From Liolophura sinensis (taxonomy: Eukaryota; Mollusca; Polyplacophora; Chitonida; Chitonidae), in assembly GCF_032854445.1 (NCBI RefSeq), contig NC_088302.1, positions 56,522,237 to 56,586,236 on the forward strand: 64,000 nt of DNA, given 5' to 3'. Positions within the stretch are counted from its first letter, which is position 1. Each line of letters opens with the position of its first letter. Shown here piece by piece: positions 1,154-58,077 of the stretch. Made by a program: the position numbers and the translations under genes. The notes under the pieces were generated by a model. That model was not told where the DNA came from and searched no databases. It saw only the letters and a program-made list of their open reading frames with translations.

Positions 1154-3260
1154 CGGAATTGGTATTGAAGGAGAATCACTAGAAGGGTAGTTTGGATTGA
1201 CTGTTTTAAAGCATGTCCAATCAAAGTGTCCGACAAATTGATGCACTGCGCTGTCTTTGCACATTAAATGTTACGATGATATAAAAGTCCACAGTTCAAA
1301 AAGTGCAGTTCAGAAAGAATAACAATAAATAGCACTATACAACCCCCACAAGTGAAGGGTCCTCAAAAACAAAATCATGAACAGTTTTTCATAAAATTTT
1401 CTTGATGTAACATGATAATATTCCTTATGTGACGATGAATCAGGCAGATGGAAGTCAAGTAAGCCAGTTATGCTGGTGTGACATGTGCACTTTAAAGTAC
1501 ATGTCTGAGGTCATTTGTGGCTATACGTCTGCAATGGGTGACGCCAAGTATTATTACACTTCGAAACTAACTACAGCAGGTTTAATACAATGCATTTAGT
1601 TTTTACAATTTAGCAAAGCAATTCAGATTATCTTTATCCTTATCACTTAAACCTGCTTTTAAGACATGTATGGTTCTTCACACTGGAGTAGCTCTTTAAA
1701 CTGTGTTCCGATCACTAGGACACTGAAAAGCCTGTTTAGTCCTGTCCTTGGCAAGAGAATTTGTAGATTGATCTCCATGCTCTCACCCTACATGTGGAAG
1801 TGAAAATAAGTCCCGTAAGAGTTGATCACTCCCATGTGGCTGTTTGCACAGTGTACTCTTTGTTGAAGACCACCAATGTGAGCTTCATATATCTATATAC
1901 GTGGGAATGTTCATCAGTATCTTGCCACTGATCTATGGTTTATATCAGGGCCAGGATCACGAAGAGATCTTAAACTGAAGTCAAAATTACAAATCACTAC
2001 AAAAGTGTTATTTCTTACATAATAAGGTCAAAATATTGCTTGACAACGTAAATTCTGGATAAGTTATAGTAAAACTAATTTCAGCTAAAATAACAGAAAG
2101 GAACATATCAAGTTTAACGAATGGTATTTTGACTCCAATCTACAAACGCTTTGAGATGCTGGGCCCTGGCACTCTAGTCTCCTCCACCAATAAAACTGAC
2201 CGGCATAACGAAGGTGAAAAACAATCAAATAAATACTAACTCGTAAACAATTATAAATAAATATTACAATCAAAGATGACCACGATGATTGCTTATGTTA
2301 TAAGCAATGCATGCATAATAATTCACATGCACCTGATACTGGATTGATAATAAAATTATATGCATATTCAATCATAGTTTTATGATCAATCCTGTAACTG
2401 ATGTTTGTGGCATAGTTATACGATGTGCAACAACAACACTATCTCCACAACTTCCAAAAAAAAATAGCCACTCCGTAAAGCAAATCTACTGAGCATAAAA
2501 GAGACTTTTATCAAATAGTCACTGAAGCTTTATAGCACATTATAACATTTGCATGTGGCATACAACAGAGAGAAAACCATAATGAAGCACCAAAATCTAT
2601 CGCTACGCTCAGCCGAGCCGAAGACGGGAACTCTGTCAAGTGGACATGACACATTAGAAGCAAAATTTCCAAAACGGAAACTTACAGTGTCTGAGTTCTC
2701 TTCAGTTTTAAATGCGCATTTACATATCAGCTGTGAACTACCGATGCATCGCATTTAAACAGTTAGGCAGCATGTTCTGAAACACTTTCCATCCACTTAC
2801 AACTTGGCCTGGATAAAAATAACCCTGCAGAAGGCCAAGTGCAGCGGTATCACGACAAGGACGCGTGTAACAAAATACTTCGGAAACCCTCGACGTCTGA
2901 TACAAACATAATAGGGCTTATCTTAGTACCAAATGTTTCCGACTGCCGCTTTCGATCAGCTGGGCTGTGCAGCGTTACCAAGCAAAGGGAGATAACACCA
3001 TCAGGCCAGTCTGAAAATTTTCCCCGAGAGGTGAACACGTGCAGTTTTCATGCGACAATTTTCCACTCCGGTGCTGGTGTACTTATGGGTCCCATCACCA
3101 GCACCTTCGTCATTTCATCATTTCGGACGTTGATAAAGGAAGGAGCCGGGAAGCGAGCAAGGGAAGGAGTTTGCAAGCGAAAGCTTTGTTGCAAGGAGAG
3201 ACCTGTGCAAGACATTGAGTTTGACACATGCCAAACAGTAAACAGTACACTGTCGTAGTC
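1154..3260. other. Intergenic sequence with dispersed-repeat segment; upstream region of PSPH
   Basis: Segment 1440-1730 is an inverted relative of 7570-7990 (separate entry). The last few hundred bases should contain the PSPH promoter and 5' leader. No TATA box, upstream exon or other conserved coding sequence was recognised. The frames open at 2549-2758 and 2839-3258 have no recognisable family. Confidence 0.4.
1440..1730 (-). repeat. Dispersed repeat copy, inverted relative of 7570-7990
   Basis: The reverse complement of this segment aligns with 7570-7990. Shared blocks include GATAAGGAT followed by AAGATA, TAAATTGTAAAAA, TTTAAACTGCTG-like text, TAGCCACAAATGAC and GTACTTTAAAGTGC, in the same order. 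Diverged, non-coding, probably an old transposable-element copy of unknown class. Confidence 0.6.
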
Positions 3261-3962
3261 ATGGCGAATTTTGAGGAAACCCAGAGGATTTGGTGTGAGG
3301 CCGATGCTGTTTGTTTTGACGTGGACTCTACTGTATGTACCGACGAAGCCATTGATGAACTGGCAAATTACTGTGGGGTGGGAAGACAAGTGGCCGAGTG
3401 TACAAAGGCTGCTATGGGCGGTGCGATGACCTTCCGCAGAGCACTGACACAACGCCTGAACATTATACGCCCCACAAGAGACCAGCTAGCTAACTTCATG
3501 ATAGACCATCCTCCTAACCTTACCCCGGGGGTGAGAGAACTGGTGCAGCTCTTACAGAGTAGGAATGTACCCATTTACCTCGTATCAGGCGGATTCCAAA
3601 GTGTGATTGAACGTGCTGCTGAGGAACTGGAGATTCCAAGCTCACATATTCACGCCAATAAACTGCGGTTTTTCATGGATGGTGAGTATGCTGGATTCGA
3701 TGAAACACAACCTACATCTGAATCAGGGGGAAAAGCTGCTGTTATAAAACGGCTTAAAGACAAATGTGGGTATAAGAAGTTAGTGATGATTGGTGATGGG
3801 GCCACAGATTTGGAAGCGTGCCCACCAGCTGATGCATTCATCGGGTTTGGTGGAAATGTGATTCGAGAGAAAGTGCAGTCCAAAGCCAAGTGGTATGTGA
3901 CAGACTTTGAAGAGCTTATTTCAACACTGGAAAATGGAGCTGCGCAAGAAATTGATCACTAA
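3261..3962 (+). CDS. PSPH: Phosphoserine phosphatase, intronless
   Basis: Removes phosphate from O-phospho-L-serine, the last step of cytosolic serine biosynthesis. The protein belongs to the HAD superfamily and matches animal PSPH along its whole length without an intron. Motif I is FDVDSTV, with nucleophile and acid/base Asp at residues 20 and 22. Motif II is in LVSGGF near residue 109, a conserved Lys lies in SGGKAAVIKRLK, and motif IV is GDGATDLEACPPADAF near 178. The substrate-pocket stretch AMGGAMTF and GEYAGFDETQPT are also present. I chose the ATG at 3261, giving 233 residues (human 225), because it has G at -3 and G at +4. An in-frame ATG at 3228 (244 residues) has a pyrimidine at -3 and would add an unconserved leader. 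No damage is visible. A possible poly(A) signal AATAAA lies at 4481. Lack of introns is unusual for this gene in animals: a retrocopy or lineage-specific intron loss. Confidence 0.95.
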   Translation: MANFEETQRIWCEADAVCFDVDSTVCTDEAIDELANYCGVGRQVAECTKAAMGGAMTFRRALTQRLNIIRPTRDQLANFMIDHPPNLTPGVRELVQLLQSRNVPIYLVSGGFQSVIERAAEELEIPSSHIHANKLRFFMDGEYAGFDETQPTSESGGKAAVIKRLKDKCGYKKLVMIGDGATDLEACPPADAFIGFGGNVIREKVQSKAKWYVTDFEELISTLENGAAQEIDH

Positions 3963-9087: not shown

Positions 9088-12000
9088 CTGTTAAAGAAAA
9101 GGAAAATATGATGGATGTAAATAATGGTTTTACTGATTTTATATTGATTTAAAAAAAAAACAATTAAAGATTCAAAATATAACTTAAATGCAAGATCAGA
9201 AAATATGAATGGAAAGATCTGATGAATTCACCAAATCATGTATTCACTTGATATATATGGTTGTTTTGTGAGGTAAATACTTTCCTTCAAAGGGTACAAA
9301 GTACTAAAAAGGTCAAAGAATGAAGGGGAAAGTACAAAAACTTAATGGTGAGATCTTTTACCTCCTTTTCCTTCTCATTTTCTTGCTGTAGAAGGCTGTC
9401 AATAACAGCCTGGAACTGGTCCTGAAATCATAGAACAGTAACTCACTCAGCATATGACCACCATCGTCTCTGTCACCATTCCAATCTGGTCCACATATAA
9501 GCTACATGTAACCAGGGGAATTCAACAGGAGAGTTTCTTGTTCACACTATTTTGCTGTTAAAGGTAAAAACAGCCCTACTATATCTTGTCACTTATAAAA
9601 AATGCTACACAACCTTTGTTGACATTAATTTACCGATCATTTACCTCATTGTGCTCCAAAGGCACAAATAATATCTCTTTCATTTAGAAACTTCTCAAAT
9701 TTCTCCATCATTTGATTGTGAACTTTCTTTCAGACACCTATGTTATAGTAAATGTGATCAATAATACTTGCCCAAAATATACAGTAGGACTTTTTTTAGC
9801 TCTAGAAAACAAACAGTTTTCACCTTTATCGCCAAAGTCCACACACCACTATTAAAACATAGATGTAACAATTGCCTGCAATGGCTGTGAACTGTTTGTG
9901 ACTCTTTTATTATCACACTTCCAAGAACTTGTAGTCCTAAAACAAAGTGTACAAAAACATGCTGAAGTCTCATTTCAAACCTGCCTAGAGTATGTCTTCA
10001 CGGATGTGCAGAGCCGGACAACTCGTGTTTTTTGCTACCCACAAGGTACAGCTGTTTGTAGGCTATTCCAGAGCCTTGCATCGAGGCCATCGACTTGTAC
10101 GTTTATGCTACATACAGTTTAATGTATAGATGGTAAAAGGATAGAACTACTCGCAAACTTCAACAGCATACTGAGCTAACTGATTGGTTACCATGGCAAT
10201 GGGGTCATCAGTGGTAGCAGCCTGGTCCTCCTGTGTCTGCCTTCGTTCTCTCAAGTCTTCAATCTGCTCCTGTAACTCCGACAATCGAGCCTTCAAAGTC
10301 CCTGGTAAAAGAAAAAACAATGAGATCTAGTTACGTGTATCTCATGATAGCATGTACTCCTGACTCTGAGAGGCCCCCTGATCAGACAGGGTGAAGCCTT
10401 GATGTGATGACTCAGCTAATCCCTGTGATGTGATGTATGACAGGTGTGTTATCTGGTTACCTGTATTCCCTGATAGCATGTAGTCCTAACCCTGATCAGA
10501 CAGGTTGAAGCCTTGATGTGAGGACTCAGCTAGTCCATGTGATGTGATGTATGGCAGGTGTGTTATCTAGTTACACGTACCTGTATCTCCTGATAGCATG
10601 TAGACCTGACTCTGTGAGGCCCCCTAATCAGACAAGGTGAAGCCTTGATATGAGGACTCTGCTAGTCCCTGTGATGTGATGTATGACAGGTGTGTTATCT
10701 AGTTACCTGTATCCCCTGATAGCATGTAGTCCTAACTCTGATCAGACAGGGTGAAGCCTTGATGTGAGGACTCTGCTAGTCCCTGTGATGTGATGTATGA
10801 CAGGTGTGTCATCTAGTTACCTGTATCCCCTGATAGAATGCAGTCCTGACTCTGTGAGGCCCCCCGATCAGACACGGTGAAACCTTGGTGTGAGGACTCA
10901 GCTAGTCCCTGTGATGTTATGTATGACAGGTGTAATCTAGTTACCTGTATCTCCTGTAGCATGCAGTCCTGACTATGATCAGACAGGGTGAAGCCTTGAT
11001 GTGAGGACTCAGCTAGTCCATGTGATGTGATGTATGGCAGGTGTGTTATCTAGTTACACGTACCTGTATCTCCTGATAGCATGTAGACCTGACTCTGTGA
11101 GGCCCCCTAATCAGACAAGGTGAAGCCTTGATATGAGGACTCAGCTAGTCCATGTCATGTGATGTATGGCAGGTGTGCTAACTAGTTACACGTACCTGTA
11201 TCCCCTGATAGCATGCAGTCCTGACTCTGTGAGGCCCCCTGATCAGACAGGGTGAAACCTTGGTGTGAGGACTCAGCTAGTCCATGTGATGTGATGTATT
11301 GCAGGTGTGTTATCTAGTTACACGTACCTGTATCTCCTGATAGCATGTAGACCTGACTCTGTGAGGCCCCCTAATCAGACAAGGTGAAGCCTTGATATGA
11401 GGACTCAGCCAGTCCCTGTGATGTGATGTATGACAGGTGTGTTATCTAGTTACCTGTATCCAGTGATAGCCTGCAGTCCTAACCTTAATCAGACAGGGTG
11501 AAGCCTTGATGCGAGGAGAGCTAGTCCCTGTGATGTGATGTATGACAGGTGAGTTATCTAGTTACCTGTATCTCCTGTAGCATGCAGTCCTAACCTTGAT
11601 CAGACAGGGTGAAGCCTTGATGTGAGGACTCTGCTAGTCCCTGTGATGTGATGTATAGCAGGTGTGTTATCTAGTTACCTGTATCTCCTGATAGCAAGTA
11701 GTCCAGACTCTTCTGAACAGACAAGGTGAAGCCTTGGTGTGAGGATTCAGCTAGTCCGTGTGATGTAATGTATGGCAGGTGTGCTATCTAGTTACACGTA
11801 CCTGTATCTCCTGATAGCATGTAGTCCTGACTCTGTGAGGCCCCCTGATCAGACAAGGTGAAGCCTTGATGTGAGGACTCAGCTAGTCCCTGTGATGTGA
11901 TGTTGGTATCATCTTCCCCTGAATCCATGATGTTGACATCTTTGTCTTCCTCATCCTCAGAACTGCTCAGCTCTGGCAGGATCATGTCCTGGTCCACTGC

Positions 12001-15000
12001 AGAACAAATCAAATGAGAAATTTATTAAATATGTCCAACATATATTTTAGTGACACTGTAGTAAATGTATTACATATAATACTAAAATAGTATAGTTTTA
12101 AAAAAATTATTATAATGACAATAAAACCTGTCTAGATTAGCATCCACTTTAAGTATAGTCATGGGGAAAACAAAGCTGACATGGAATATTGGAGAATTAG
12201 TAAAATGTTACATTCTGTTTGTGTGGGAACAAGAAATCACCTGCTTATTTTGGTCCATGCTAAATGTAAAACATGTACTTGTGTGTAGGAACAGCAAATA
12301 AAGATAAAACCAACTGAAACTTGTCCCATATCTGGCTATAGACACAGTTTAGACACATCTGCATAGAGTTTCTGAGATGAGAGTCACCAAACATCTTACA
12401 CATGTCCAGTGTTGTGCTGGTGTCGGTACGCTGGAGTGGGCGGTCATCGCTAGTGGATCCAGACGCCTCAACCACAGTCTGTGGCTGACCACTCGAGTCA
12501 TTCAGAGGCTTATCATCCTCTGTGATTACCTCCCACTTCACATCAATAGCCTCCGCGTCCATACGAAAAAGTCTCTTCACTTCCTTCTCAATGTCAGGCT
12601 GCTCCATATACTGAAAGGACAACGCTGTTCATGTATGGCCAGATCTTACAAAAAATGTCTGACAGCTGCCTGCGACAAACATATGGCTCCTGCTACAGAA
12701 GGTTTTTATTCTGGAACTTCCAAAACGGAAGGTAAAATTTCAAACTTGTAACCATTAACTGTTGGTGACACACAGGCCATGTGGGCAGATGTAAGGAGGA
12801 AAATGTCCACGCTGAACATAAGTTCATGTAATAACAGCATGGCTGACCAACACGGTTAGCATTTTAATGTTGAAGGGAGGTAACTACCTTTAATGTCAAG
12901 ACATTAATAGTGTTACCTGTTCATATAAAAAAAAACTAAGTACATGGAAGTAGAGCTCAACATAGCACAACTTAAAACTGCTAGCAACGACAAGTACACA
13001 ACATGGGGTCACACACTTCAATGAGTACTACAATGTAAAAAGCTGAGTTTGAGAAAAGACAAAAGTAAGGGGATTGTACACGTAGATGGGCATTACTTAG
13101 GTGCCAGGTTTTCTATGTTATGGAACACACGTATAAGCTGTGTCTTATTTCCTTCATTTAGACACCACAGATTTTAATACTCACATTCACTTTCTTCTTT
13201 AATGTTTTCCTGAATCGACGTTTCCTTACATTTTTCAGAGGAGCTGTTACTGTAAGAGAAGAATTTGATTTTTTAACATTTAATTCTATGCATGCCATTT
13301 TATCCAATCAGTACAGAGGTCACAGATGTCTTCCAATCAACCTGAACATCTGTTGACCATAATATAAATCTATTACATTTAAACATGTAGGAAAATGTAA
13401 TTCTTCAAGTTCAGATTTCGCTGCTGAACTACATTACATCAGGCCCTGATCCAAGTGCTGAACTACATTACATCAGGCCCTGATCCAAGTGCTGAACTAC
13501 ATTACATCAGGCCCTGATCCAAGTGCTGAACTACATTACATCAGGCCCTGATCCAAGTGCTGAACTACATTACATCAGGCCCTGATCCAAGTGCTGAACT
13601 ACATTACATCAGGTCCTGATCCACTGCTGAACTACATTACATCAGGCCCTGATCCAAGTGCTGAACTACATTACATCAGGCCCTGATCCACTGCTGAACT
13701 ACATTACATCAGGCCCTGATCCAAGTGCTGAACTACATTACATCAGGCCCTGATCCAAGTGCTGAACTACATTACATCAGGCCCTGATCCAAGTGCTGAA
13801 CTCCATTACATCAGGCCCTGATCCACTGCTGAACTACATTACATCAGGCCCTGATCCAAGTGCTGAACTACATTACATCAGGCCCTGATCCAAGTGCTGA
13901 ACTACACTACATCAGGCCCTGATCCAAGTGCTGAACTACATTACATCAAGCCCTGATCCACTGCTGAACTACATTACATCAGTCCCTGATCCAAGTGCTG
14001 AACTACATTACATCAGGTCCTGATCCACTGCTGAACTACATTACATCAGGCCCTGATCCAAGTGCTGAACTACATTACATCAGGCCCTGATCCAAGTGCT
14101 GAACTACATTACATCAGGCCCTGATCCAAGTGCTGAACTACATTACATCAGGCCCTGATCCACTGCTGAACTACATTACATCAGGGCCTGATCCAAGTGC
14201 TGAACTACATTACATCAGGCCCTGATCCAAGTGCTGAACTACATTACATCAGGCCCTGATCCAAGTGCTGAACTACATTACATCAGGCCCTGATCCAAGT
14301 GCTGAACGCCAGTGACATTTTATGATTTCAAATGGCACCTTAGAAGGCAGAATGGGTTAAATGTAGTAATTTTTCACCAGTTTTCCCATAAAAAAGGATA
14401 ATCTAGGTCAAAATTAGCAAAGCACAGCCTTCAGGTATGTGAATTAACCTAGACTGATAGGGACACAGGATTCAGAAGTCATCATCAAGGTCATCCCAGT
14501 TGGTGTTTTACTTGATGAAAACTGGTACACTGTCCCTATCACGCTACCCATATATGTAACTACAAAACCTGAACATACTTCCATGGTTCCATATGTACTT
14601 CTTGTCTTTGCTGTCCTTTTTCTTTGGGCTTTCTTTCTCCTCTATTTCCTGTGTTTCCTCTTCAGTAGTGCACACCATCATCTGTTCCAAACATATGCAT
14701 TGTATCATCTCAAATGTTTCCTTAAATATAACAATGTATTAACTTGCATAATATTTGTCATAATCAGTTTTCCCTCACACATAAGAACAGTTGAAAGACC
14801 TTAAATGACTTGATATGTAAATATTGAATTATTAAATGCATTATGAAAGGTTCGTTCAAAGCTATATATCTAGATTGTGGACAAGAAGAGACTGTCAAGA
14901 CACACTGCTACATGAAGGAAATACATGTTTCCAACGAGGGAAGACATGGTACACATATACACCTGCTTTATAACAACACAGTCCAGGGGGAAAGATGTTA

Positions 15001-20928: not shown

Positions 20929-21291
20929 CTGCTGTGAATCACTATTATACACTGTAAAGGATTATTAAATTAAGGAAAGGTTGTCTAATTAGCAAGGCAG
21001 TTGTAGCATGTAGGTACATGTATGCTCAGTGTGTGACAACGCTAGTAGGCACATGTTAGTACCCAGACATGTTTAGCTTAGCCATCTGGTGCTCTGGGCA
21101 CATTGTGCAGAGTTCAGTTGAATGATAACCAGGTAACCCTATCTCACCTGGTAATGATGTAGGATAACACTGGGTCCAAATCACACAGGATACAGTCTCT
21201 GTTTCTGAACTTCAGTCACACTATCTGCAGGGAAAATATGAACAGTATGGTGTCATGGAAAACAAGGTATTTGACAGAAGTTGTTAAAACT

Positions 21292-22181
21292 AGGGATATA
21301 TGAACAGTGGGACCTATGCTGTACTTTGATTGTCCCTAGAGGGTACGTGTTAGTATGTGGGCTGTGACAGTGGGGCCTATGCTGTACTATGGTTCTCCCT
21401 AGAGGGTACGTGTTAGTATGTGGGCTGTAATTGTGGGACCTATGCTGTACTATGGTTCTCCCTAGAGGGTACGTGTTAGTATGTGGGCTGTACTTGTGGG
21501 ACCTACATGTATGCTGTACTATGGTTGTCCCGAGAGGGTACGTGTTAGTATGTGGGCTGTGACAGTGGGGCCTATGCTGTACTATGGTTCTCCCTAGAGG
21601 GTACGTGTTAGTATGTGGGCTGTAATTGTGGGACTTATGCTGTACTATGGTTGTCCCTAGAGGGTACGTGTTAGTATGTGGGCTGTGACAGTGGGGCCTA
21701 TTCTGTACTATGGTTGTCCCTAGAGGGTATGTGTTAGTATGTGGACTGTGACAGTGGGTCCTATGCTGTACTATGGTTCTCCCTAGAGGGTACGTGTTAG
21801 TATGTGGGCTGTGACAGTGGGGCCTATTCTGTACTATGGTTGTCCCTATAGGGTATGTGTTAGTATGTGGACTGTGACAGTGGGTCCTATGCTGTACTAT
21901 GGTTCTCCCTAGAGGGTACGTGTTAGAATGTGGGCTGTAATTGTGGGACCTATGCTGTACTATGATTGTCCCTAGAGGGTACGTGTTAGTATGTGGGCTG
22001 TGACAGTGGGACCTATGCTGTACTTTGATTGTCCCTAGAGGGTACGTGTTAGTATGTGGGCTGTAACAGTGGGACCTATGCTGTACTATGGTTGTCCCTA
22101 GAGGGTACATGTTAGTACGTGGGCTGTAATTGTGGGACCTATGCTGTACTATGATTGTCCCTTGAGGGTATGTGTTAGTAT
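21292..22181. repeat. 63-bp minisatellite
   Basis: Fourteen units containing CTGTACTATGGTTGTCCCTA then GAGGGTACGTGTTAGTATGT. Because 63 is divisible by three, the minus strand stays open for 327 codons with a 21-residue repeat (core NTYPLGTTIVQHRSH). There is no splice, start or family support for translation, and substitutions are not obviously synonymous. Confidence 0.92.
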
Positions 22182-22259
22182 TTGCAGATAATGATACAAA
22201 GTTCTTAAAAAATAAAACAAGAGAGATTAGCGACAAACAAGTTAAATTGGGATCATGTC

Positions 22260-22720
22260 TTCCCCAAATTACCTCCCTTGTTACACAACAGCAACTGTGG
22301 CTTAATGCGATATTAGTTTTTGAGAAACTACGAGAAGTGGGACCTCACCTATTAAAGCATGCACTATGTACATGTAGGTTATGTCAACAAAATGTAAGAA
22401 AAAACAATATCACCCTTGGTGAGTCGCAGAGATTTCGAGAGATCTTAAATGAAGCCATTGTGTTTCAGTTCATTATAGACTATATATGTATATATTTGAG
22501 TTTGACGAAGCTGTCTTCTATTTTATTAGAGCCAGGTTTTTTAAATTATTGGATTTAAAAAAAATATAAAACATTTATCACGGGCATTCCAAGTACATGT
22601 AGGTTTACAAAATTAAAATCTTCAACCAGCTCATGCTGTTTTGACTCAGAAAGTTTGCAAACTTAGCAATTTTCTCACCACCCAACCACAGCTTACTCCT
22701 ATAAACACGCCTTTATCAAA
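22260..22720 (+). repeat. Dispersed repeat copy, direct relative of 15470-15930
   Basis: See the partner entry at 15470-15930. The order of shared blocks is the same; this copy carries an extra ~30 bp near 22340. The open frame at 22172-22558 is a by-product. Confidence 0.6.
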
Positions 22721-28105: not shown

Positions 28106-28432
28106 TTTTCAATGCTGTATAAACATTGCAGCTGGACATTGAAGTGTACCTCTAAGTAATGGTGATATCGTGAATAAGCTTGTGCATGACCATTGGCAGT
28201 GTTTTTTTTCAGAACCATTACAGGACACATGTGCATTGTTTATGGGCTGGTCGTTTTAAATGTTGTGCAGTCAACCCTGGCAAAATTGTCACTGCTCTTG
28301 AATAAATGAGATGAAAGTCACAGTCAGATCTTATAATATATTCTTGTAACAATATAAATTTCTTTTTCAATGAAAAAAACCAGATTGCTGATATACAGGA
28401 TGAATGAATGATTGATGATGACTTAATGCCTA

Positions 28433-31132
28433 TGGTGTTGTCGTGAACAGGTATCTTCTGTCAGTGTCCTGGCGTATGGTGCTGTCGTGAACAGGTATCT
28501 TCTGTCAGTGTCCTGGCCTATGTTGCTGTCGTGGACAGGTATCTTTTGTCAGTGTGCTGGCCCATGGTGCTGTCGTGAACAGGTATCTTCTGTCAGTGTC
28601 CTGGCCTATGGTGCTGCCGTGGACAGGTATCTTTTGTCAGTGTCCTGACCTATGGTGTTGTCGTGGACAGGTACATGTATCTTCTGTCAGTGTCCTGGCC
28701 TATGGTGGTGTCGTGAACAGGTGTCTTCTGTCAGTGTGCTGGCCTATGGTGCTGTCGTGGACAGGTATCTTCTGTCAGTGTGCTGGCCCATGGTGCTGTC
28801 GTGAACAGGTATCTTCTGTCAGTGTCCTGGCCTATGGTGCTGTTGTGGACAGGCATCTTCTGTCAGTGTCCTGGCCCATGGTGCTGTTGTGGACAGGCAT
28901 CTTCTGTCAGTGTGCTGGCCTATGGTGCTGTTGTGGACAGGTATCTTCTGTCAGTGTCCTGGCCCATGGTGCTGTCGTGAACAGGTATCTTTTGTCTGTG
29001 TCCTGACCTATGGTGCTGTCGTGAACAGGTATCTTTTGTCAGTGTCCTGGCCTATGGTGCTGTCGTGGACAGGTATCTTCTGTCAGTGTCCTGGCCTATG
29101 GTGCTGTTGTGAACAGGTATCTTCTGTCAGTGTCCTGGCCTGTGGTGCTGCCGTTGACAGGTATCTTCTGTCAGTGTCCTGGCCTATGGTGCTGTCGTGA
29201 ACAGGTATCTTCTGTCAGTGTCCTGGCCTATGGTGTTGTTGTGAACAGGTATCTTCTGTCAGTGTCCTGGCCTATGGTGCTGTCGTGGACAGGTATCTTC
29301 TGTCAGTGTCCTGGCCTATGGTGCTGTCGTGAACAGGTATCTTCTGTCAGTGTCCTGGCCTGTGGCGCTGTTGTGGACAGGTATCTTTTGTCAGTGTGCT
29401 GGCCTGTGGTGCTGTTGTAGACAGGTATCTTTTGTCAGTGTCCTGGCCTATGGTGCTGTTGTGGACAGGTACTGTATCTTCTGTCAGTGTGCTGGCCTAT
29501 GGTGCTGTTGTGGACAGGTATCTTCTATCAGTGTCCTGGCCTATGGTGCTGTTGTACACAGGTATCTTTTGTCATTGTGCTGGCCTATGGTGCTGTTGTG
29601 GAGAGGTAGCTTCTGTCAGTGGCCTGACCCATGGTGCTGTTGTGGACAGGTATTTTTTGTCAGTGTGCTGGCCTATGGTGCTGTTGTGGACAGGTATCTT
29701 TTGTCATTGTGCTGGCCTATGGTGCTGTTGTGGACAGGTATCTTTTTTGTCAGTGTCCTGGCCAATGGTGCTGTTGTGGACAGGTAGCTTCTGTCAGTGT
29801 CCTGGCCTATGGTGGTGTTGTGGACAGGTATCTTCTGTCAGTGTGCTGGCCTGTGGTGCTTTTGTGAACAGGTGTCTTTTGTCAGTGTCCTGGCCCATGG
29901 TGCTGTTGTGGACAGGTATCTTCTGTCAGTGTGCTGGCCTGTGGCGGTGTCGTGGACAGGTATTTTTTGTCATTGTGCTGGCCTATGGTGCTGTTGTGAA
30001 CAGGTAGCTTCTGTCAGTGTGCTGGCCTATGGTGCTGTTGTGGACAGGTATCTTCTGTCAGTGTCCTGGCCCATGGTGGTGTTGTGGACAGGTAGGCCCC
30101 TATCTTCTGTCAGTGTCCTGGCCTATGGTGCTGTTGTGGACAGGTATCTTCTGTCAGTGCCCTGGCCTATGGTGCTGTTGTGGACAAGTATCTTCTGTCA
30201 GTGTGCTGGCCTATGGTGCTTTTGTGAACAGGTATCTTCTGTCAGTGTCCTGACCTGTGGTGCTGTTGTGGACAGGTATCTTTTGTCAGTGTGCTGGCCT
30301 GTGGTGCTGTTGTAGACAGGTAGCTTCTGTCAGTGTTCTGGCCTATGGTGGTGTTGTAGACAGGTAGCTTCTTTCAGTGTGCTGACCTATGGTGGTGTTG
30401 TGGACAGGTATCTTCTGTCAGTGTCCTGGCCTATGGTGCTGTTGTGGACAGGCATCTTCTGTCAGTGTCCTGGCCTATGGTGCTGTTGTGGACAGGTATC
30501 TTTTGTCAGTGTCCTGGCCTATGGTGGTGTCGTGGACAGGTATCTTTTGTCAGTGTGCTGGCCTATGGTGCTGTTGTGAACAGGTAGCTTCTGTCAGTGT
30601 CCTGGCCTATGGTGGTGTTGTGGACAGGTATCTTCTGTCAGTGTGCTGGCCTATGGTGCTTTTGTGAACAGGTGTCTTTTGTCAGTGTTCTGGCCCATGG
30701 TGCTGTTGTGGACAGGTATCTTCTGTCAGTGTCCTGGCCTATGGTGCTGTTGTGGACAGGCATCTTCTGTCAGTGTGCTGGCCTATGGTGCTGTTGTGGA
30801 CAGGTATCTTTTGTCAGTGTCCTGGCCCATGGTGGTGTCGTGGACAGGTATCTTTTGTCAGTGTGCTGGCCTATGGTGCTGTTGTGAACAGGTAGCTCCT
30901 GTCAGTGTCCTGGCCTATGGTGGTGTTGTGGACAGGTATCTTCTGTCAGTGTGCTGGCCTATGGTGCTTTTGTGAACAGGTGTCTTTTGTCAGTGTGCTG
31001 GCCCATGGTGCTGTTGTGGACAGGTATCTTCTGTCAGTGTCCTGGCCTATGGTGCTGTTGTGGACAGGTATCTTCTGTCTGTGTCCTGGCCTGTGGTGCT
31101 GTTGTGGACAGGTATCTTTTGTCAGTGTCCTG
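28433..31132. repeat. 44-bp minisatellite, about 60 units
   Basis: Units of GGCCTATGGTGCTGTTGTGG, ACAGGTATCTTCTGTCAGTG and TCCT (44 bp). Variants alternate T/C and G/C at fixed positions (GTGCTGG or GTCCTGG; GTTGTGG or GTCGTGA). Every unit carries a donor-like ACAG/GTATCT and an acceptor-like TCTTCTGTCAG on the plus strand. The period is not divisible by three, yet few stops occur, hence many overlapping frames. No evidence for translation. Confidence 0.95.
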
Positions 31133-31388
31133 GGATATAATGGCCTTGGACCAGTTAGTCATGTTATGGAATATAATGGCCTTGGACCAGTTAGTCATGT
31201 TATGGAATATAATGGCCTTGGACCAGTTAGTCATGTTATGAAATATAATGGCGTTGGACCAGTTAGTCATGTTATGAAATATAATGGCCTTGGACCAGTT
31301 AGTCATGTTATGAAATATAATGGCGTTGGACTAGTTAGTCATGTTATGAAATATAATGGCCTTGGACCAGTTTGTCATGTTATGAAAT
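31133..31388. repeat. 36-bp minisatellite abutting the 44-bp array
   Basis: Seven units of ATATAATGGCCTTGGACCAG, TTAGTCATGTTATGGA. It starts directly after the last 44-bp unit with no spacer. The 36-bp period leaves frames open on both strands (12-residue repeats). Confidence 0.93.
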
Positions 31389-32926
31389 AAAACCCACATC
31401 AATGCATTTCATTAAGGTCCCTTGATGTGAATAAGAATCTGTTCATCCATACAGATATCATGTACAGTGAAAGTTAAAAAAAAAAGGAAGAGATGGACTT
31501 TTTAGCTGGCCTGTATGAAGTAAGGAGAAGCATTATGAGAGGGGGATCAGATGTTGTGGGTGGCGGTGTTAGTTTGGTTTAGGTTTTTGGCCAGTGGTAA
31601 GGTTGCAGTGGTACACAGATAGTACACGGATTGTCAGATGCTGTTCGTGATTTGCATATCAAAGACCTCTGTGGTAAATTGGTACGTGAACTTCCCCACA
31701 GTGTGATTTACCACTGCAATGATTTGCTACTCCATAACATGCAAAGTCACTGCTCTGCAATCCTTGTGCTTATGGTAATAATATCTGTGTATGACAGTGT
31801 CAATCATTCTACTTTATTTTGGTTTAGAGGTCAATATTTCAACATATCACATGGCATTAACATTATGCAGGTTTGCGAACTGCTTAAATCAGAGGAGTTA
31901 CCAGTATTCTCTGAATTCCTTGTTATGTATGTTTGAATATCGGCTTTAACATGAGTTTACATGTATGCAAAGTCATACATCAGTTTAGTATATTCTTGTG
32001 TTTTAAACTCATTTCACAGGTTGTTGGTTTCTCTTCATTATGGTTTGGCTACCCTCGGTTAATTATCAACATTTTCTAGTATCTGTATGTTAAAGATGTG
32101 AAAGTTACACTTCCGTGAGTTTAATGGTTCATCTGCTGTACAAATCCTGGTTAGTTTGTGTATGGCTAGGTATATGTAAGATAGGTATATGTGTGATCTG
32201 GGGAATTCCGGAACAGATCTCAGTTCTACACTTCACTATATAACAAGAGCCACATTGAAGGGATTCATGTACAAGCACGGGTACAGGAAATTCACTCTGA
32301 ATGGTGTGTACTGGAAGCATAAGGTTGTGAAGTTCACTGGTGGCTATTCCCAGACACGAACTGTAGGTATAGTGTGTAAAAAGTACAGTGAACACAGTGT
32401 GTGTTTAGGAGTCACTGTACACTGGCAGTGTTGGAGGTACATGCACTGTTCAAGTATAAAGACAGGTGCTAGGCTTGACCTACCTGTACATGTTCTGTAT
32501 ACATTAATTAACTGTATGGGGTTGTGTTCCACTTCCTGGCTCTCTGCTGGGTATGTGTCTGTCCACGTTGCTGTGAAAGGCAAGTCTGCATGTTCTAACA
32601 CTGGAAGATTTACAGTTGTTGTGTTCCCACAAAATGTTTGTAAAATGCCTAAAGGCCTTAATTGAATTATAAATTCTAAATTTTAACTATTTTTAAATTA
32701 CAAGTAAAAGTTATTTTAGCAGTCAAATGTTGGTTTTGCACAATTCACTGAGTTCGAGTAGAAGTCGTTAAAGAGGAGAATTAGATCGTTCTCTTGTTTT
32801 GCTGTATAACAGAACTAGGAGATTGAACAAAGTTTGGCAGCAGCTTACATCACTAAATTTCTTTTGAATTATTTTTCTGTGGGAACTTCACATATGTGTA
32901 TGTTCATTACGTCTGTTTGTTGGCAG
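31389..32926. other. Non-coding, upstream intron of NIPA-like gene
   Basis: No conserved exon was recognised. Frames at 31631-31936 and 32189-32665 show no known family. The segment ends at the acceptor TTGGCAG before 32927. Confidence 0.4.
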
Positions 32927-49026: not shown

Positions 49027-50755
49027 GCCAATTATCACACTGTCGTCGTTGTTCTGGTTTTACTCTCTATGCTGTACGTCTATCACACTGTTGTCCTTGT
49101 TCTGGCTTTACTCTCTATGCTTTACGTCTATTACACTGTCGTCGTTGTTCTGGTTTTACTCTCTATGCCAGATAATATGTACGTCTATCACACTGTCGTC
49201 GTTGTTCTGGTTTTATTCTCTATGCTCTACGTCTATCACACTGTGGTCGTTGTTCTGCTTTTAGTCTGTATGGTGAACGTCTGTCACACTCTCATTGTTG
49301 TTCTCCTTTTACTCTCTATGCTGAACGTCTATCACACTGTCGTCGTTGTTCTTACCCTACACTGTGATGTACGTCTATCACACTGTCGTCGTTGTTCTGC
49401 TTTTACTCTCTGTGCTGAACGTCTATGACGTATAGTCTGTATGTTGTACGTCTATCATACTGTCATCGTTGTTCTGGTTTTAGTTTGTATGCTGTACGTC
49501 TATAACACTGTCGTCGTTGTTCTGGTTTTACTCTCTATGCTGAACGTCTATGACACTGTTGTGGTGGTTCTGGTTTTAGCCTGTATGCCGAACGTCTGTC
49601 ACACTGGCGTCGTTGTTCCGGATTTAGTCTCTATGCTGTACGTCTATCACAATGTCGTCGTTGTTCTGGTTTTACTCTCTATGCTGTACGTCTGTCACAC
49701 TGTCGTCGTTGTTCTGGTCCTACACTATGATGTACGTCTGTCACACTGTAGTCGTTGGTCTGGTTTTACTCTCTATGCTGTACGTCTATCACACTGTCGT
49801 CGTTTTTCTGGTTTTAGTCTCTATACTGTATGTCTATCACACTGTCGTCGTTGTTCTGGATTTATTTTCTATGCTGAACGTCTATCACACTGTCGTCGTT
49901 GTTCTGGTTTTACTCTCTATGCTGAACATCTATCACACTGTTGCCGTTGTTCTGATTTTACTCTCTGTCCTGAAGGTCTATCACATGGTCGTTGTTGTTC
50001 TGAATTTACTCTCTATGCTGAACGTTTATCACACTGTCGTCGTTGTTCTGATTTTTGTCTCTATGCTGTACGTCTATTACACTGGCGTCGTTGTTCTGGT
50101 TTGGTCTATATGTTGTTCGTCTGTCACACTGCCGTCGTTGTTCTGGTCCTACACTATGATGTACGTCTATCACACTGTCGACGTTGGTCTGGTTTTAGTC
50201 TGTATGTTGTACGTCTATCTCACTGTCGTCGTTGTCCTGGTTTTAGTCTGTATGTTGTACGTCTATCACACCGTCGTCGTTGTTCTGGTCCTACACTATG
50301 ATGGACGTCTATCACACTGTCGTCGTTGGTCTAGTTTTAGTCTGTATACTGTACATCCATCACACTGTCGTCGTTGTTGTAGTTTTACTCTCTATGCTGA
50401 ACGTCTATCACACTGGGTTCGTTGTTCTGGTTTATTCTATATGCTGTATGCCTATCACACTGCCGTCGTTGTTCTGGTCCTACACTATGATGTACGTCTA
50501 TCACACTGTCGTCGTTGTTCTGGTTTTAGTCTGTATGTTGTACGTCTATCACACTGTCGTCGTTGTTTTGGTCCTAGACTATGATGTACGTCGATCACAT
50601 TGTCGTCGTTGGTCTGGTTTTAGTCTGTATGCTGTACATCTATCACACTGTCGTCGTTGTTGTAGTTTTACTCTCTATGCTGAACGTCTACCACACTGTC
50701 GTCGTTGTTCCAGTTTTACTCTCTATGCTGCATGTCTATCGTGGTTGTTTTATTT
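49027..50755. repeat. 48-bp satellite, left part
   Basis: About 35 units of GTCGTCGTTGTTCTGGTTTT, ACTCTCTATGCTGTACGTCT and ATCACACT. The same unit resumes at 54372 after the retroelement. A 48-bp period (16 codons) gives long frames coding hydrophobic 16-residue repeats such as VYHTVVVVLVLLSMLN. The other frames are open too, arguing against real protein. Confidence 0.95.
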
Positions 50756-50767
50756 ACGCTTATATTT
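50756..50767. repeat. Left target-site duplication of the retroelement
   Basis: ACGCTTATATTT, repeated exactly at 54360-54371, where satellite sequence resumes with TGGTTTTACTC. Confidence 0.7.
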
Positions 50768-50778
50768 ATAACCTGTGC

Positions 50779-51948
50779 ATGCCTCGATTCTGTTTTTTGA
50801 CCCCGATGCGAGGCCTCTCCACAATTATACCAATAACTGTGAACAACAACAATATGTATAGGACTAACGCTGGGAATAGTGGTGCATGTTCCCAGGGCGA
50901 GTCAATGAATGATTCGTTTGCACTAAGACCCATTTCCATCCAAATACCGGATATATTTGAGACCATTAAACATGGTATTTCCACCAAACCGTGTTCTATC
51001 CAACTGAACGATTGTTTGACACTGAATTCCCAAAGCAAACATTTAACTATTTCCAAATGTGGACATACCAATTGTCTTACATGTCCATCATTTGATACAT
51101 CCGCCACTTTTATTTCCTCACTGACTGGTAAATGTTATTCTGTTAATTCCTACGGTAACTTAAGTTGTATTGCCTCCAGCTTTATTTACTTGGTAACATG
51201 CAAGAAGTGTGGTCAGCCGTATGTTGGGAAGACCACCCAGAAACTACATCTACGGGTGAACGGGCACCGTAAGTCCGTGCGCAAGAAACAATTGCTAGGC
51301 AAGCATTTCTCTGCCTCCGACCATGACTGGGACCATTTCAGCATTCAAATAGTAGAATCGGTTTATCCATCAACAAATGAGACAGATGTCGAATTTGAAC
51401 GTAAAATCCGTGACTGTGAGCTTTTCTGGATGCTAGAGATTGGTTCAGTCTTCCCATATGGGTTGAATGATAACGTTATGGGAATCGGCAATGTAACATC
51501 TAGCCAACCATATGACTCCAATGTAACAAATTTATTCAAATACCATAAACGTAGACCTCGCAGTCATGGTAGGAGGAAGTTCAACAGAAACATTATTCAC
51601 AAACACGTTAGCGTTAGCTATTTAGTAGGATTGTCGTATGACACCAATAGCATGCATGCTCTACGCACAGTATTATATGCACTGCCATTGAGCTTGCTAA
51701 AACAGGTAGTTCAAGACGTATCCAATAACATACACAATTTTAATGTTCCACCTCACCTTGTACGTCTGTGTCAAGACATATCGTATTTTCGATTGAATCG
51801 CCCTGTAACTACAACTGAAACTCAACACGATCGGCTCTTTCTGAAGAAAAAGTATATAGACAGTGGCCTTGATTTAATTAACCTACCACGCATCTTTAAT
51901 GAACCTGACGTTCGCAATGCTGTGCCTAATTATTTTAATATCCAATAG
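50779..51948 (+). pseudogene. N-terminal part of PLE protein: zinc finger and GIY-YIG endonuclease
   Basis: The open frame starts at ATG 50779, just inside the insertion boundary; the frame also runs upstream into satellite by chance. A Cys/His cluster KCGHTNCLTC near 51055 is followed by the GIY-YIG core IYLVTCKKCGQPYVGKTTQK at about 51187 and by RVNGHR. The endonuclease nicks target DNA to prime reverse transcription. A linker of basic and hydrophobic residues follows. A TAG at 51946 interrupts the frame; the same frame continues after it with family-like text (SYEYTKPIASKIFNY), so the stop is a lesion and not the natural end. Confidence 0.8.
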
Positions 51949-53728
51949 CCACCTTGCATATCCTATGAGTATACAAAGCCTATCGCTTCCAAAATTTTCA
52001 ATTATTCCCAGGCCATCAAGAAGTTCGATTTGGCGACGTATACTTCTGGCGGCTATAACTGTGATTGTGAATCCTCAGTTTTTACCTACGACAAATGTAA
52101 ACATGTCCTGACTGTTGACCTTAATATTATTAAGAATCATGATCTAAGGAATCTCTTTGTGAGGGGTCCTAAGTATAGAGAAAAGAGAAATGTTAACATT
52201 AGATCAAACAAAAAAATATCATCTCGGCACTTGACGAGTATGTTAAAAAATGGTCAAAACGAGAGAAAGTGGATTCTTCGGTACTTAACGATTGGCTTGA
52301 GATTGTCAAAAGGAAAGTTAGTTTAACTATACACCTTCTAGACATTGATGCTCTACCTAAAGCTAAACAGGTTCTGAAGGATCCCACTGTGCAAGAAACA
52401 CTCGTTGACCTTCATAGTAAATTTGTCATCACTGTAGCAGACAAGGCTCCTAATAATGTCATCTTTATTTGCAAGAATTATTATTATCAAATTCTTGTTC
52501 AAGAGCATCTACAACGACATCCACGTATTCTGCTACTACATGTACTCTGGAGGAACTATTTAACAAACACAAAACCTTTCTTAAAGAAAGGCGCATAAAT
52601 ATACCTACCCGTCACACAAAAATACCACAACTTTACTGGATTCCTAAAATGCATAAATCCCCATACAAGGCTCGATTTATTGCAGGTTCAAGAAGTTGTA
52701 CCACCAAACTCTTGTCAACCCTACTTACGAGAGCGTTACAAGAAGTAAAGTCATTTTGGAATAAGTATTGTTGTGCCATAACAAAAAGTCAGGTGTCAAC
52801 TGCATGTGGATTCTTAACTCCAAACGTCTTACAGAAGAACTCGATGCTCATATGCATATACCGTACAAAGGCGTATCCACATGGGATTTCTCTACTCTAT
52901 ACTACGATTCCTCACAAAGATCGTATTGAAAGAATATCGTCGTTAATTGTCTCGGTATTTACTAAAACAAGTCACCGTTGCATTAACGTCAGAAGCAATA
53001 AGGCTTTCTTTAGTTCTGCTCTTTATAAAGGTTACCACTCATGGGATGTTACATTATTTATTGAATTACTTGAATTTCTCATCAATAACATCTATGTGAA
53101 ATTCGGAGATACCATTTACCAACAGTACATAAGTATTCCAATGGGTACCAATTGTGCGCCTCTTTTGGCAGGCCTATACCTGTTTTCATATGAATACGAC
53201 TATATGCAGAAATTACTTAAAAGTAATATCTTTAAAACTCGATCCTTTTCATTTACCAAGCGGTATATTGATGATCTACTGGCGTTAAATAACCCCCATA
53301 TTGCTGAAGCGGTGCAGGAAATCAATCCGCCTTCATTGGATTTAAAGGAGACAACAGATAGTCCTGATGGTACATCTTATTTGGATCTATATCTCTACAA
53401 AGACGAACAAGGCCTCCTTTCACGCCGCCTTTACGACAAAAGGGATAATTTCAATTTTAATATTGTAAATTATCCTTATTTAGATAGCAATATAACAAAG
53501 GGTCCTGCATATGGCGTATACATATCTCGCCTTGTAGCTTTTGTCAGATCTTGCGTTAATTGTGATGACTTTAATCTGCTTCACAAGTTGCTAGTTCAAA
53601 AACTAGTTTGTCAAGGATACTCCATCAAACGCTTTCATTCTAAGTTTCTCAAATTTTACAACGAGTATAACACTCTTGTTGGCAGGTATGGACAGAGCGT
53701 TCAGAATCTCTGGCGATCTGCATTGTGA
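51949..53728 (+). pseudogene. Reverse transcriptase part of PLE protein, frameshifted
   Basis: Family motifs occur in order but in different frames. CDCESSVFTYDKCKHVLTVD lies near 52060 in frame 1. After an A-run at about 52208-52214, SALDEYVKKWSKRE follows in frame 3. After about 52510, IPQLYWIPKMHKSPYKARFI is in frame 2. Shifts at about 52780 and 52895 put the motif A Asp (TWDFSTLY) in a different frame from the following TTIPHKD. QQYISIPMGTNCAPLLAGLY and the catalytic box YIDD at 53264-53275 are intact. At least four frameshifts plus the upstream stop mean the copy is dead. Confidence 0.85.
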
Positions 53729-54371
53729 TCTACCACATAGACGGCGCTGTTACCCCTATGTACATATCTATCACGTACATGGTATTTAACAACATAGATG
53801 GCGCTGGTTGCCTAGTGTAACCGTCTATCTTGTATGTCATGTGTAACATCATACATGGCGCCTCTTGTAGCATGAGATCTTTACATATTAACGGGAAAGA
53901 CGTAATCGTCCGTTACTTTTGAATCACATTCTGATCGGTTAGGGTCTGTAACGCTCTTCATTTTCAAACTGTATCTAATACCGCTTAACCTGGGGCTAGG
54001 GGCCGTAAAGGTAGTCATGCTAATTATATCAGCATGATGCCTTTTATGAACAGTTGCAATTAAAGCGCGACTGAGATACTTGTTTAATTGTTATTTGACA
54101 TGGAACTCATTCACGGACTATGAATTTGAACTTTGATATGGAATTCATGCCTGGAATATTCATTGTCTGCCCAGCATCATTGAAAACTGATGACCGCTTC
54201 TCTCTTGTGTGTTACCGGCTTTATTTCTTATTTGTATAATTTCTTATATACCTTTGTCTTTGGGAGTTAGTGTTAAACGTTGTTTTGGAAATGGATCTTG
54301 CGATTATCGACTTGAAACGCCCTTTACGCACTACAAATGGTATATGAATGTCGGACTTGACGCTTATATTT

Positions 54372-57262: not shown

Positions 57263-58077
57263 ACGAACAGACTGGCAAACATCAGAACTTCCATGTAATG
57301 ACACGGTATGTGTCGGAGAAGAGGTACACATACATGGTTAGCTGTTAGAATACATGCTCCACGGCATCATGGTAATTTCATGTTGATTTAAGCAATTATC
57401 CAGTATGAGTTGATCTCATGGGGAGTATTATATTCTTAGTTGGGAGGAACATTACATTTTCTTGTCACCATGACAACGTTGGCGCCATCATAAAACATAT
57501 TCAGGGGAACAAAACACATGCATAAATGAATACGAAACCAGTCGACACGTTCTCTACTCTAAATCCATACGCTGTACAATGGTGTAGGTTTGCATAGAGA
57601 AAAGCCCAGCGGAAGTGTTCCTTGTCATGTCTTATTTGCTCACGTGACTAAACGCCTGTCCCAAATTCCTGTCCCGAAGAGAACGTTCTTCCGGTACACC
57701 GGCTGCTCCTAGACCGTCTGATACCTCGACCTTGACGACCTTGATTGTCCAGACCTGTACAGAAATATAAAGGGATTGGAGACATTTGGTTTGCGCCTTA
57801 TCCAAATGTGGCGTGGTATGATTAGGTACAACAAAGATGTTTGTTTTCTTTCTTTGTTGTCGAAACGACCCCACAACAGTGTAATATAAGTTTTACTGTT
57901 TCTGTGATATGTCTTCAGTGGGGTAGAGATTTTTTTCAGGTAGGCTACTAAAATCAATGACAGTAGTGTGCAAGTTGGGCTATGTATGGTTCTAATATAT
58001 TGTTTTGAAACTGTTACCAGTAGCGATATTTATTAAGTTTGGAGAAGTTTCTTTCTGTTATATGTTTTTCATTTCGC

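What the first reader, a model, noticed from the sequence alone, without database searches (positions are those of the whole stretch)
10325..11996. A coding exon of TAF7 has seeded a satellite that fills the next intron
The last ~100 nt of exon 7, its splice donor and about 35 nt of intron are repeated twelve more times, in the same orientation, across intron 7. Each unit keeps a donor-like sequence, so the real donor faces many decoys. Unit lengths vary (109-132 bp), and the exon copy is close to the consensus. The exon may therefore either be the founder or be converted by the array. It is a live example of satellite birth from coding sequence, with possible effects on isoform choice or exon evolution.
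Basis: partly seen in the sequence, partly recalled or inferred. Interest (0 to 1): 0.7.

Follow-up and report, generated by a model that had tools for sequence, protein, structure and literature searches.

The report
Exon tail multiplied into its intron
In this invertebrate's TAF7 gene the end of one protein-coding exon, with its splice site, has been copied twelve more times and makes up nearly all of the next intron; the same kind of structure is known from lancelets under the name mirages, and here it turns up in a mollusc-like animal.

Summary
The last 102 nt of TAF7 exon 7, its donor and about 30 nt of intron form a 132-bp unit that recurs twelve times across intron 7, filling 1,477 of its 1,500 bases. 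A whole-genome DNA search matched only this place: a local minisatellite, not a classical satellite.

Exon-as-founder is the better reading but not proven. The exon copy is closest to the consensus of the rest and has 1 coding substitution where 6.4 are expected; 8 of 12 intron copies carry stops. It shows no similarity to the human linker beyond shuffles, and no relative could be compared.

Any downstream decoy donor adds an early stop, so fidelity probably rests on exon definition (inferred; copies also hold weak acceptor-like sites).

The kind is known: lancelet "mirages". Mitochondrial gene order points to a lophotrochozoan host, probably a mollusc; the nearest report that I saw there is exon duplication in earthworm metallothionein genes. 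Interest moderate.

The parts
11802..11996 (-). TAF7 exon 7 (acceptor ...TTCTGCAG before 11996; donor after 11802, phase 1)
   Evidence: homology
11802..11903 (-). Repeated coding segment: last 102 nt of exon 7, reading ITSQGLAESSHQGFTLSDQGASQSQDYMLSGDT
11772..11903 (-). Unit U00 (exon copy, 132 bp: 102 exon + 30 intron)
11796..11804 (-). Authentic donor CAG|GTACGT (last exon base 11802)
   Evidence: score 9.29 with a donor matrix recalled from memory
10325..11771 (-). Twelve intron copies U01-U12 (starts 11771, 11654, 11541, 11429, 11297, 11165, 11033, 10922, 10796, 10682, 10550, 10436)
10302..10324 (-). Non-array acceptor tail of intron 7 (CTCATTGTTTTTTCTTTTACCAG); its first bases may still be a remnant of the unit
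10192..10301 (-). TAF7 exon 8 (3' end provisional: weak donor ATG|GTAACC)
10329..10337 (-). Last decoy CAC|GTAACT, -1 G lost; 33 nt from there to the end of the intron

Best explanation
The array is a 'mirage': a minisatellite born from an exon-intron boundary. A segment made of the 3' end of TAF7 exon 7, its 5' splice site and about 30 nt of intron was duplicated in tandem (first step inferred: slippage or a microhomology-mediated duplication) and then amplified by unequal exchange between copies (inferred), until the array replaced or outgrew nearly all of intron 7 except the acceptor tail. Intron copies then drifted (shown: stops, frameshifts, 12-nt and 6-nt indels), while the exon copy was held near the starting sequence by selection on the protein (inferred from its shortage of substitutions). 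The decoy donors are probably tolerated because the spliceosome recognises exon 7 by pairing its own acceptor with the first donor (exon definition, inferred); the copies have donors but only weak acceptor-like sites. Using any later donor would read an in-frame stop after three codons of intron (shown by translation). I think it has no function of its own: a by-product with a possible cost (mis-splicing to a truncated TAF7) and a possible channel of gene conversion into the exon.
For: Unit anatomy and count. Exon copy most central: mean identity 0.931, 0.977 to the others' consensus, 3 differences in 132, the only one in coding sequence being TTG/CTG, synonymous. Exon-part substitutions 1 in 102 vs 6.38 expected from the 12 intron units, Poisson P=0.0125, while its intron part is not slow (2 vs 2.1). 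ML tree: branch to U00 0.0076, the shortest (U10 0.0077 and U09 0.0087 are close). Intron copies read in the exon's frame: 3 of 12 keep an open reading, 1 is frameshifted without a stop, 8 meet a stop; variable columns do not depend on codon position (11, 9, 14 of 34; P=0.43). The long form (with 12 nt) is shared by the exon and edge unit U12; short units fit a deletion at a CAG microhomology (my reading). The coding frame is the only open frame of six and scores like other coding windows. Every downstream decoy gives a stop 69 residues into the exon 7-onward reading. Minisatellites abound here (14 groups, 18,123 of 64,000 bases).
Against: No relative's TAF7 was available, so founding versus early capture is not separated. 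The repeated segment shows no detectable similarity to the human linker (957 of 2000 shuffles as good). The codon score also overlaps the intron controls (5 of 55 open intron frames as high), and 17 of 25 other TAF7 windows score higher, so that test is weak. Tree support is poor (nodes 30-67, one at 96). Unit substitutions are not independent, so the Poisson value is approximate; to be closest to the consensus has a 1 in 13 chance by rank alone. A founder intron of unit part plus tail would be only about 50 nt, short for an animal, so part of the old intron was lost or the model is incomplete. Exon definition: a rough scan finds, in 8 of the 12 intron copies, one AG after C or T with pyrimidine content (0.69-0.75) like real TAF7 acceptors (0.44-0.81 in the five placed correctly; three of my eight acceptor positions were off and gave no value), so cryptic mini-exons are not excluded. 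Splicing is unobserved.
Confidence: 0.72

Rival explanations
1. Capture: the minisatellite arose first in intron 7 and its first copy was later exonised by a donor shift, adding about 34 residues to the protein.
For: No sequence similarity of the segment to the human TAF7 linker. The region is full of minisatellites. One open frame of 102 nt is not rare.
Against: Window linker from VNIMD to RRQTQED is 71 residues vs 61 in human; without the segment it would be 37. The exon copy is the most central unit, not a random one. Codon usage is ordinary for coding sequence (weak).
Confidence: 0.18
2. Conversion (not exclusive of the others): exon and array are homogenised together, so the exon copy is repeatedly overwritten by array copies and the question of founder has no fixed answer.
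For: Exon is near the consensus. 53 of 136 character pairs among units are four-gamete incompatible, against a mean fraction 0.222 in 300 simulations on the ML tree, 10 of which reach it, so units probably exchange sequence.
Against: The simulation used kappa 4 and no rate variation, the fit had a ratio of 1.95 and a gamma shape of 0.64, which makes the contrast less sure. The exon copy is sole carrier of a gamete in 6 cases; four units exceed that (7, 18, 7, 7), one equals it and seven have fewer, so it does not stand out. Common array variants that would damage the protein (TAG in 3 and in 4 of 12 copies) are absent from the exon, so any conversion is filtered.
Confidence: 0.25
3. Regulated decoy system: copies act as poison splice sites that tune TAF7 level through nonsense-mediated decay.
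For: Four decoys have the same 9-mer as the real donor and every decoy gives an early stop. Strong donor-like sites are 7.1 per kb here vs 1.9 per kb in other TAF7 intron pieces. Eight of 12 copies hold an acceptor-like site.
Against: Copies vary like neutral sequence. Lancelet mirages are reported not to disturb regular splicing (PMC3087553, PMC3902484 passages), though the former notes that copies could act as cryptic sites.
Confidence: 0.06
4. Assembly artefact: collapsed or falsely expanded repeats.
For: Only one assembly; a contig of head-to-tail mitochondrial copies suggests that it contains some artefacts.
Against: Units differ pairwise by 2-18% with orderly indel classes, which misassembly of one sequence would not make.
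Confidence: 0.04

Closest known systems
Lancelet 'mirages' (Adh3, globins BflGb6 and BflGb9, troponin C, PGBD5; PMC3087553 and PMC3902484, passages read; the Adh paper of Canestro et al. 2002 not held, not read)
   Same: Tandem copies of a unit that straddles an exon-intron boundary, many with the splice signal, inside the same gene. As in BflGb9 the 3' end of an exon is copied.
   Different: Host is not a lancelet. Units quoted there are 150-160 bp (globins), 60 and 108 bp (PGBD5), 10-72 bp (Adh3). Copy number here (12) exceeds the 6 and 3 of the BflGb6 haplotypes and the single duplicate of BflGb9. Here the array is 98% of the intron.
Earthworm metallothionein genes (PMC12783039, passages read)
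   Same: A lophotrochozoan gene with minisatellite-length tandem repeats in an intron (the first), and in one clone tandem exon duplications absent from the transcript.
   Different: In the passages I saw the repeats are not said to derive from an exon boundary, and the duplicated exons are a separate feature with inversions.
Intron gain by tandem duplication of AGGT-containing exon sequence (model of Rogers; potato RdRp case PMC4974935, abstract read)
   Same: Tandem duplication across an exon-intron boundary as a source of splice sites.
   Different: Here the acceptor lies outside the array and no new intron is shown: an intron grew.
Other minisatellites of the same window (for example the 34-bp array in TAF7 intron 4 at 13422-14307)
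   Same: Same genome, same type of tandem growth.
   Different: Of 14 array groups only this one overlaps any of the 13 exon pieces that I could place.
Classical satellite DNA
   Same: Tandem, with subfamilies.
   Different: One small locus; no other place found.

Membership tests
mirage (exon-intron boundary minisatellite) | tandem unit spans an exon-intron boundary of the gene that hosts it | tested here: met
   102 nt of exon 7 + 30 nt of intron, 12 further copies
mirage (exon-intron boundary minisatellite) | copies carry the splice signal | tested here: met
   11 of 12 intron copies keep CAG|GTA; the twelfth has CAC|GTA
mirage (exon-intron boundary minisatellite) | normal splicing is not disturbed | not testable with these tools
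   no RNA data
mirage (exon-intron boundary minisatellite) | copy number differs between haplotypes | not testable with these tools
   one assembly only
mirage (exon-intron boundary minisatellite) | internal units homogenised, boundary units left out | tested here: inconclusive
   U01 and U12 are among the three least similar units (0.871, 0.880) but so is internal U03 (0.869), and edge unit U00 is the most central
mirage (exon-intron boundary minisatellite) | cephalochordate host, as in the cases named in the passages read | tested here: not met
   mitochondrial order ND3-ND2-COX1-COX2-ATP8-ATP6 fits lophotrochozoans (PMC3091637, PMC2728741 passages); I treat the host as a habit of reports, not part of the definition
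intron gain by AGGT duplication | acceptor derived from a downstream copy of the duplicated exon | tested here: not met
   acceptor is in the 23-nt non-array tail
classical satellite DNA | long arrays at many sites of the genome | tested here: not met
   1 match in 609 Mb, this locus (the tool says counts of repeats are lower bounds)
TAF7 | TAFII55 N-terminal region | tested here: met
   E=2.5e-56, bits 190 vs cut-off 25

The most novel reading that the evidence does not exclude
Boundary minisatellites are not a lancelet oddity but a recurrent way in which introns grow in minisatellite-rich animal genomes, and the array stays in genetic contact with its parent exon: copies drift freely in the intron and can be written back by conversion, so the tail of a general transcription factor evolves partly from a reservoir of variants stored in its own intron.
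Probability: 0.2. Interest if true: 0.7.

Novelty: new member of a known kind. Interest (0 to 1): 0.42.

Why it matters
It is a well-preserved case in which the starting sequence of a minisatellite can probably be read, because selection seems to have kept one copy legible as protein. It carries a structure that the papers I could read describe only in lancelets into a lophotrochozoan, so the process may be general. It offers a natural test of how splicing finds the right donor beside eleven copies that keep CAG|GTA, and of whether a coding exon exchanges sequence with a decaying array next to it.

Tried and rejected
Amphioxus as host: first suspected from the mirage literature; rejected on the mitochondrial gene order and, more loosely, on contig sizes. 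The lancelet gene order and karyotype that I compare with are recalled; the lophotrochozoan orders are from passages read. The tRNAs between the mitochondrial genes were not found by ARAGORN (0 in two loci), so the finer placement (mollusc rather than nemertean) is only likely.

Human homology of the segment: no signal. Search of the exon 7-8 stretch alone against solved structures: best E 1.3, nothing useful. Higher-order periodicity: mean identity by lag is flat, 0.897-0.913. Codon usage: the segment (0.139) looks like average coding sequence (68 held-out windows, mean 0.167; 25 TAF7 windows, mean 0.231) and is about one standard deviation above 55 open intron frames (mean -0.008), so weak. 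Tallies of array changes relative to the exon: 14 synonymous, 21 nonsynonymous, 5 stop among 40 distinct changes; counted with repeats 30, 34, 10 against expected fractions 0.27, 0.67, 0.06, an excess of synonymous and stop changes that I do not interpret.

Genome survey for other exon arrays: matches to Myosin_head (81), Kinesin (132) and Pkinase (138), 351 in all, read by eye: no family range recurs three or more times within 2 kb on one strand, though some neighbours overlap in part. Only part of the candidates were scored (65 of 213, 122 of 207, 131 of 842) and short exon-tail copies would be missed; as a positive control the TAF7 protein itself found 9 rows that cover the repeated segment outside exon 7. 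DNA pattern searches of prokaryote and viral collections: 0 matches, as expected. Rfam: 0 matches.

In one search the row labelled 10472 used a wrong position for the decoy at 10461; the stop it reports lies upstream of that point, so the conclusion is unchanged. In one search three of eight real acceptors (E2, E3, E6) were placed wrongly and are not used.

I also added the earthworm report.

Literature: ten searches of the held library, of which 6, 26-29, 48, 63 and 87 bear on this structure; lists were judged by title and start of abstract and some were capped (15 of 18, 8 of 10, 6 of 14). I saw no report of such a boundary array in a mollusc or other lophotrochozoan beyond the earthworm case; most subscription papers are not held.

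Full report
What is there. On the minus strand the window carries TAF7: the spliced product matches Pfam TAFII55_N at E=2.5e-56 and PDB chains named TFIID subunit 7 (human, by recall) at about 6e-70 along nearly its whole length. A whole-genome search with it lists 15 matches, all in this locus, so no second copy was found. Exon 7 runs 11996-11802 and exon 8 starts at 10301. From 11903 a 132-bp unit begins: 102 nt of coding exon, then the donor and 30 nt of intron. Twelve further copies follow in the same orientation. A core pattern is matched 13 times in the window and 0 times in 100 shuffles. Of the 1,500 intron bases 1,477 are array; the last 23 are a pyrimidine-rich acceptor tail, whose first bases may be a remnant of the unit.

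Units. Two indels define classes: a 12-nt block (present in the exon copy and in U04, U05, U06, U08, U10, U12) and a 6-nt block after the exon end (present in the exon copy, U04, U05, U06, U10). The short form can be had from the long one by a deletion between CAG repeats (my reading). U04, U06 and U10 are 97-98% identical and form the one well-supported group (96), a sign of later amplification inside the array.

Which came first. The exon copy has the highest mean identity to the other twelve (0.931) and differs at 3 of 132 sites from their consensus. In the coding part it has 1 departure where the rate in the intron copies predicts 6.38 (P=0.0125), while its intron part has 2 against 2.1. 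So the coding part, and only that part, looks slow, as selection on the protein would make it; the units are not independent, so the value is approximate. In the intron copies variation is spread evenly over codon positions (P=0.43); 8 of 12 meet a stop in the exon's frame, 1 is frameshifted without one, 3 remain open. The segment's codon score lies near the middle of held-out coding windows (31 of 68 as low or lower; among TAF7 windows 8 of 25) and above most open intron frames (5 of 55 as high): a weak test. Linker length favours an old segment (71 residues vs 61 in human, 37 without it), but the sequence is not recognisably related to the human one (957 of 2000 shuffles as good). I favour the exon as founder; early capture of an intronic repeat remains possible.

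Exchange. Among units, 53 of 136 pairs of informative characters fail the four-gamete test; simulations on the best tree give a mean fraction of 0.222, and 10 of 300 reach the observed one. The simulation used kappa 4 and no rate variation, unlike the fit, so this supports exchange between units only moderately. The exon copy does not stand out in it.

Splicing. Ten of the twelve intron copies score at least 8.56 with a recalled donor matrix, the real donor 9.29; four have the identical 9-mer. Strong donor-like sites are 7.1 per kb in this stretch (11 sites, the real one included) against 1.9 per kb (7 in 3,764 bases) in other TAF7 intron pieces. Reading past the real donor meets TAG after three codons, so every downstream decoy gives an early stop. 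Against a simple exon-definition account, a rough scan of 124 AGs in the array finds 8, one in each of 8 copies, that follow C or T and have pyrimidine content of 0.69-0.75, like real TAF7 acceptors (0.44, 0.69, 0.75, 0.75, 0.81 in the five placed correctly). The acceptor of exon 8 is the strongest by that measure. Exon definition therefore remains inference. Published lancelet cases report regular splicing undisturbed (PMC3087553, PMC3902484 passages).

Host. The genome held is 609 Mb in 632 contigs; of the 30 contig lengths that searches show, 13 are chromosome-sized (19-96 Mb). Around the mitochondrial COX1 the order is ND3-ND2-COX1-COX2-ATP8-ATP6 (ATP6, cut by the end of the locus, scores below its curated cut-off). 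A block cox3-tRNAs-nad3-trnS-nad2 conserved in chiton, octopus, abalone and other caenogastropods is described in PMC3091637 (passages), and the nemertean Lineus has nad3-S-nad2-cox1-W-cox2-D-atp8-atp6 (PMC2728741, passages). So the host is a lophotrochozoan, most simply a mollusc; the species is not known to me. A lancelet is excluded with the help of the recalled lancelet gene order.

Compared with the known. Tandem copies of exon-intron boundaries, named mirages, are reported in lancelet Adh3, globins, troponin C and PGBD5. The present array meets the structural definition. It differs in host, in copy number and in filling almost the whole intron. The nearest lophotrochozoan report that I saw concerns earthworm metallothionein genes: minisatellite-length repeats in the first intron and, in one clone, tandem exon duplications absent from the transcript (PMC12783039 passages); whether any of these copy an exon boundary I could not tell. 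The array is not an AGGT-type intron gain, because the acceptor is not in it, and not a classical satellite, because only one locus was found.

Background. The window is rich in minisatellites: 14 groups, 18,123 of 64,000 bases, against 15,222 of 160,000 in 16 stretches from set places on ten contigs. Of the 14 groups only this one overlaps any of 13 exon pieces of TAF7, PSPH and NIPA that I placed. In 351 exon-level matches to three large domains elsewhere no comparable close repetition was seen by eye, a test of low power.

Noticed in passing
49033-50740 and 54374-57264, with 50741-54373 between: Two arrays of the same 48-bp unit flank about 3.6 kb that holds a GIY-YIG domain (Pfam E=8e-5) upstream of reverse-transcriptase-like reading frames (RT recognised by eye, no Pfam hit). 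It looks like a Penelope-like element with the endonuclease in front (the Naiad arrangement, recalled) inserted into a minisatellite.
   Followed up: partly
3225-3962: Phosphoserine phosphatase lies in one open frame without introns (PDB phosphoserine phosphatases, E about 1e-92); possibly a retrocopy.
   Followed up: partly
whole window: 28% of the window is minisatellite (14 groups) against 9.5% in 16 sampled stretches of the genome.
   Followed up: partly
28428-31133 and 31135-31389: A 61-copy 44-bp array abuts a 36-bp array of a different unit with one base between them, upstream of a NIPA magnesium transporter gene.
   Followed up: no
21253-22344: The 63-bp array is open on the minus strand for 363 codons (21-residue repeat); perhaps only because 63 is a multiple of three, coding status unknown.
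   Followed up: no
G000 contig C99 (L046-L049): A 108,685-base contig carries seven COX1 matches about 15.5 kb apart: apparently head-to-tail mitochondrial genomes, perhaps an assembly product.
   Followed up: partly
G000:C1:26642195-26643386: Two myosin-head matches of nearly the same range (118-152, 121-152) 1.1 kb apart; alternative exons or a duplicated exon.
   Followed up: no
10325-11771 (U01-U12): Array changes relative to the exon show more synonymous and more stop changes than uniform mutation predicts (30 synonymous, 34 nonsynonymous, 10 stop, counted with repeats); not explained.
   Followed up: partly
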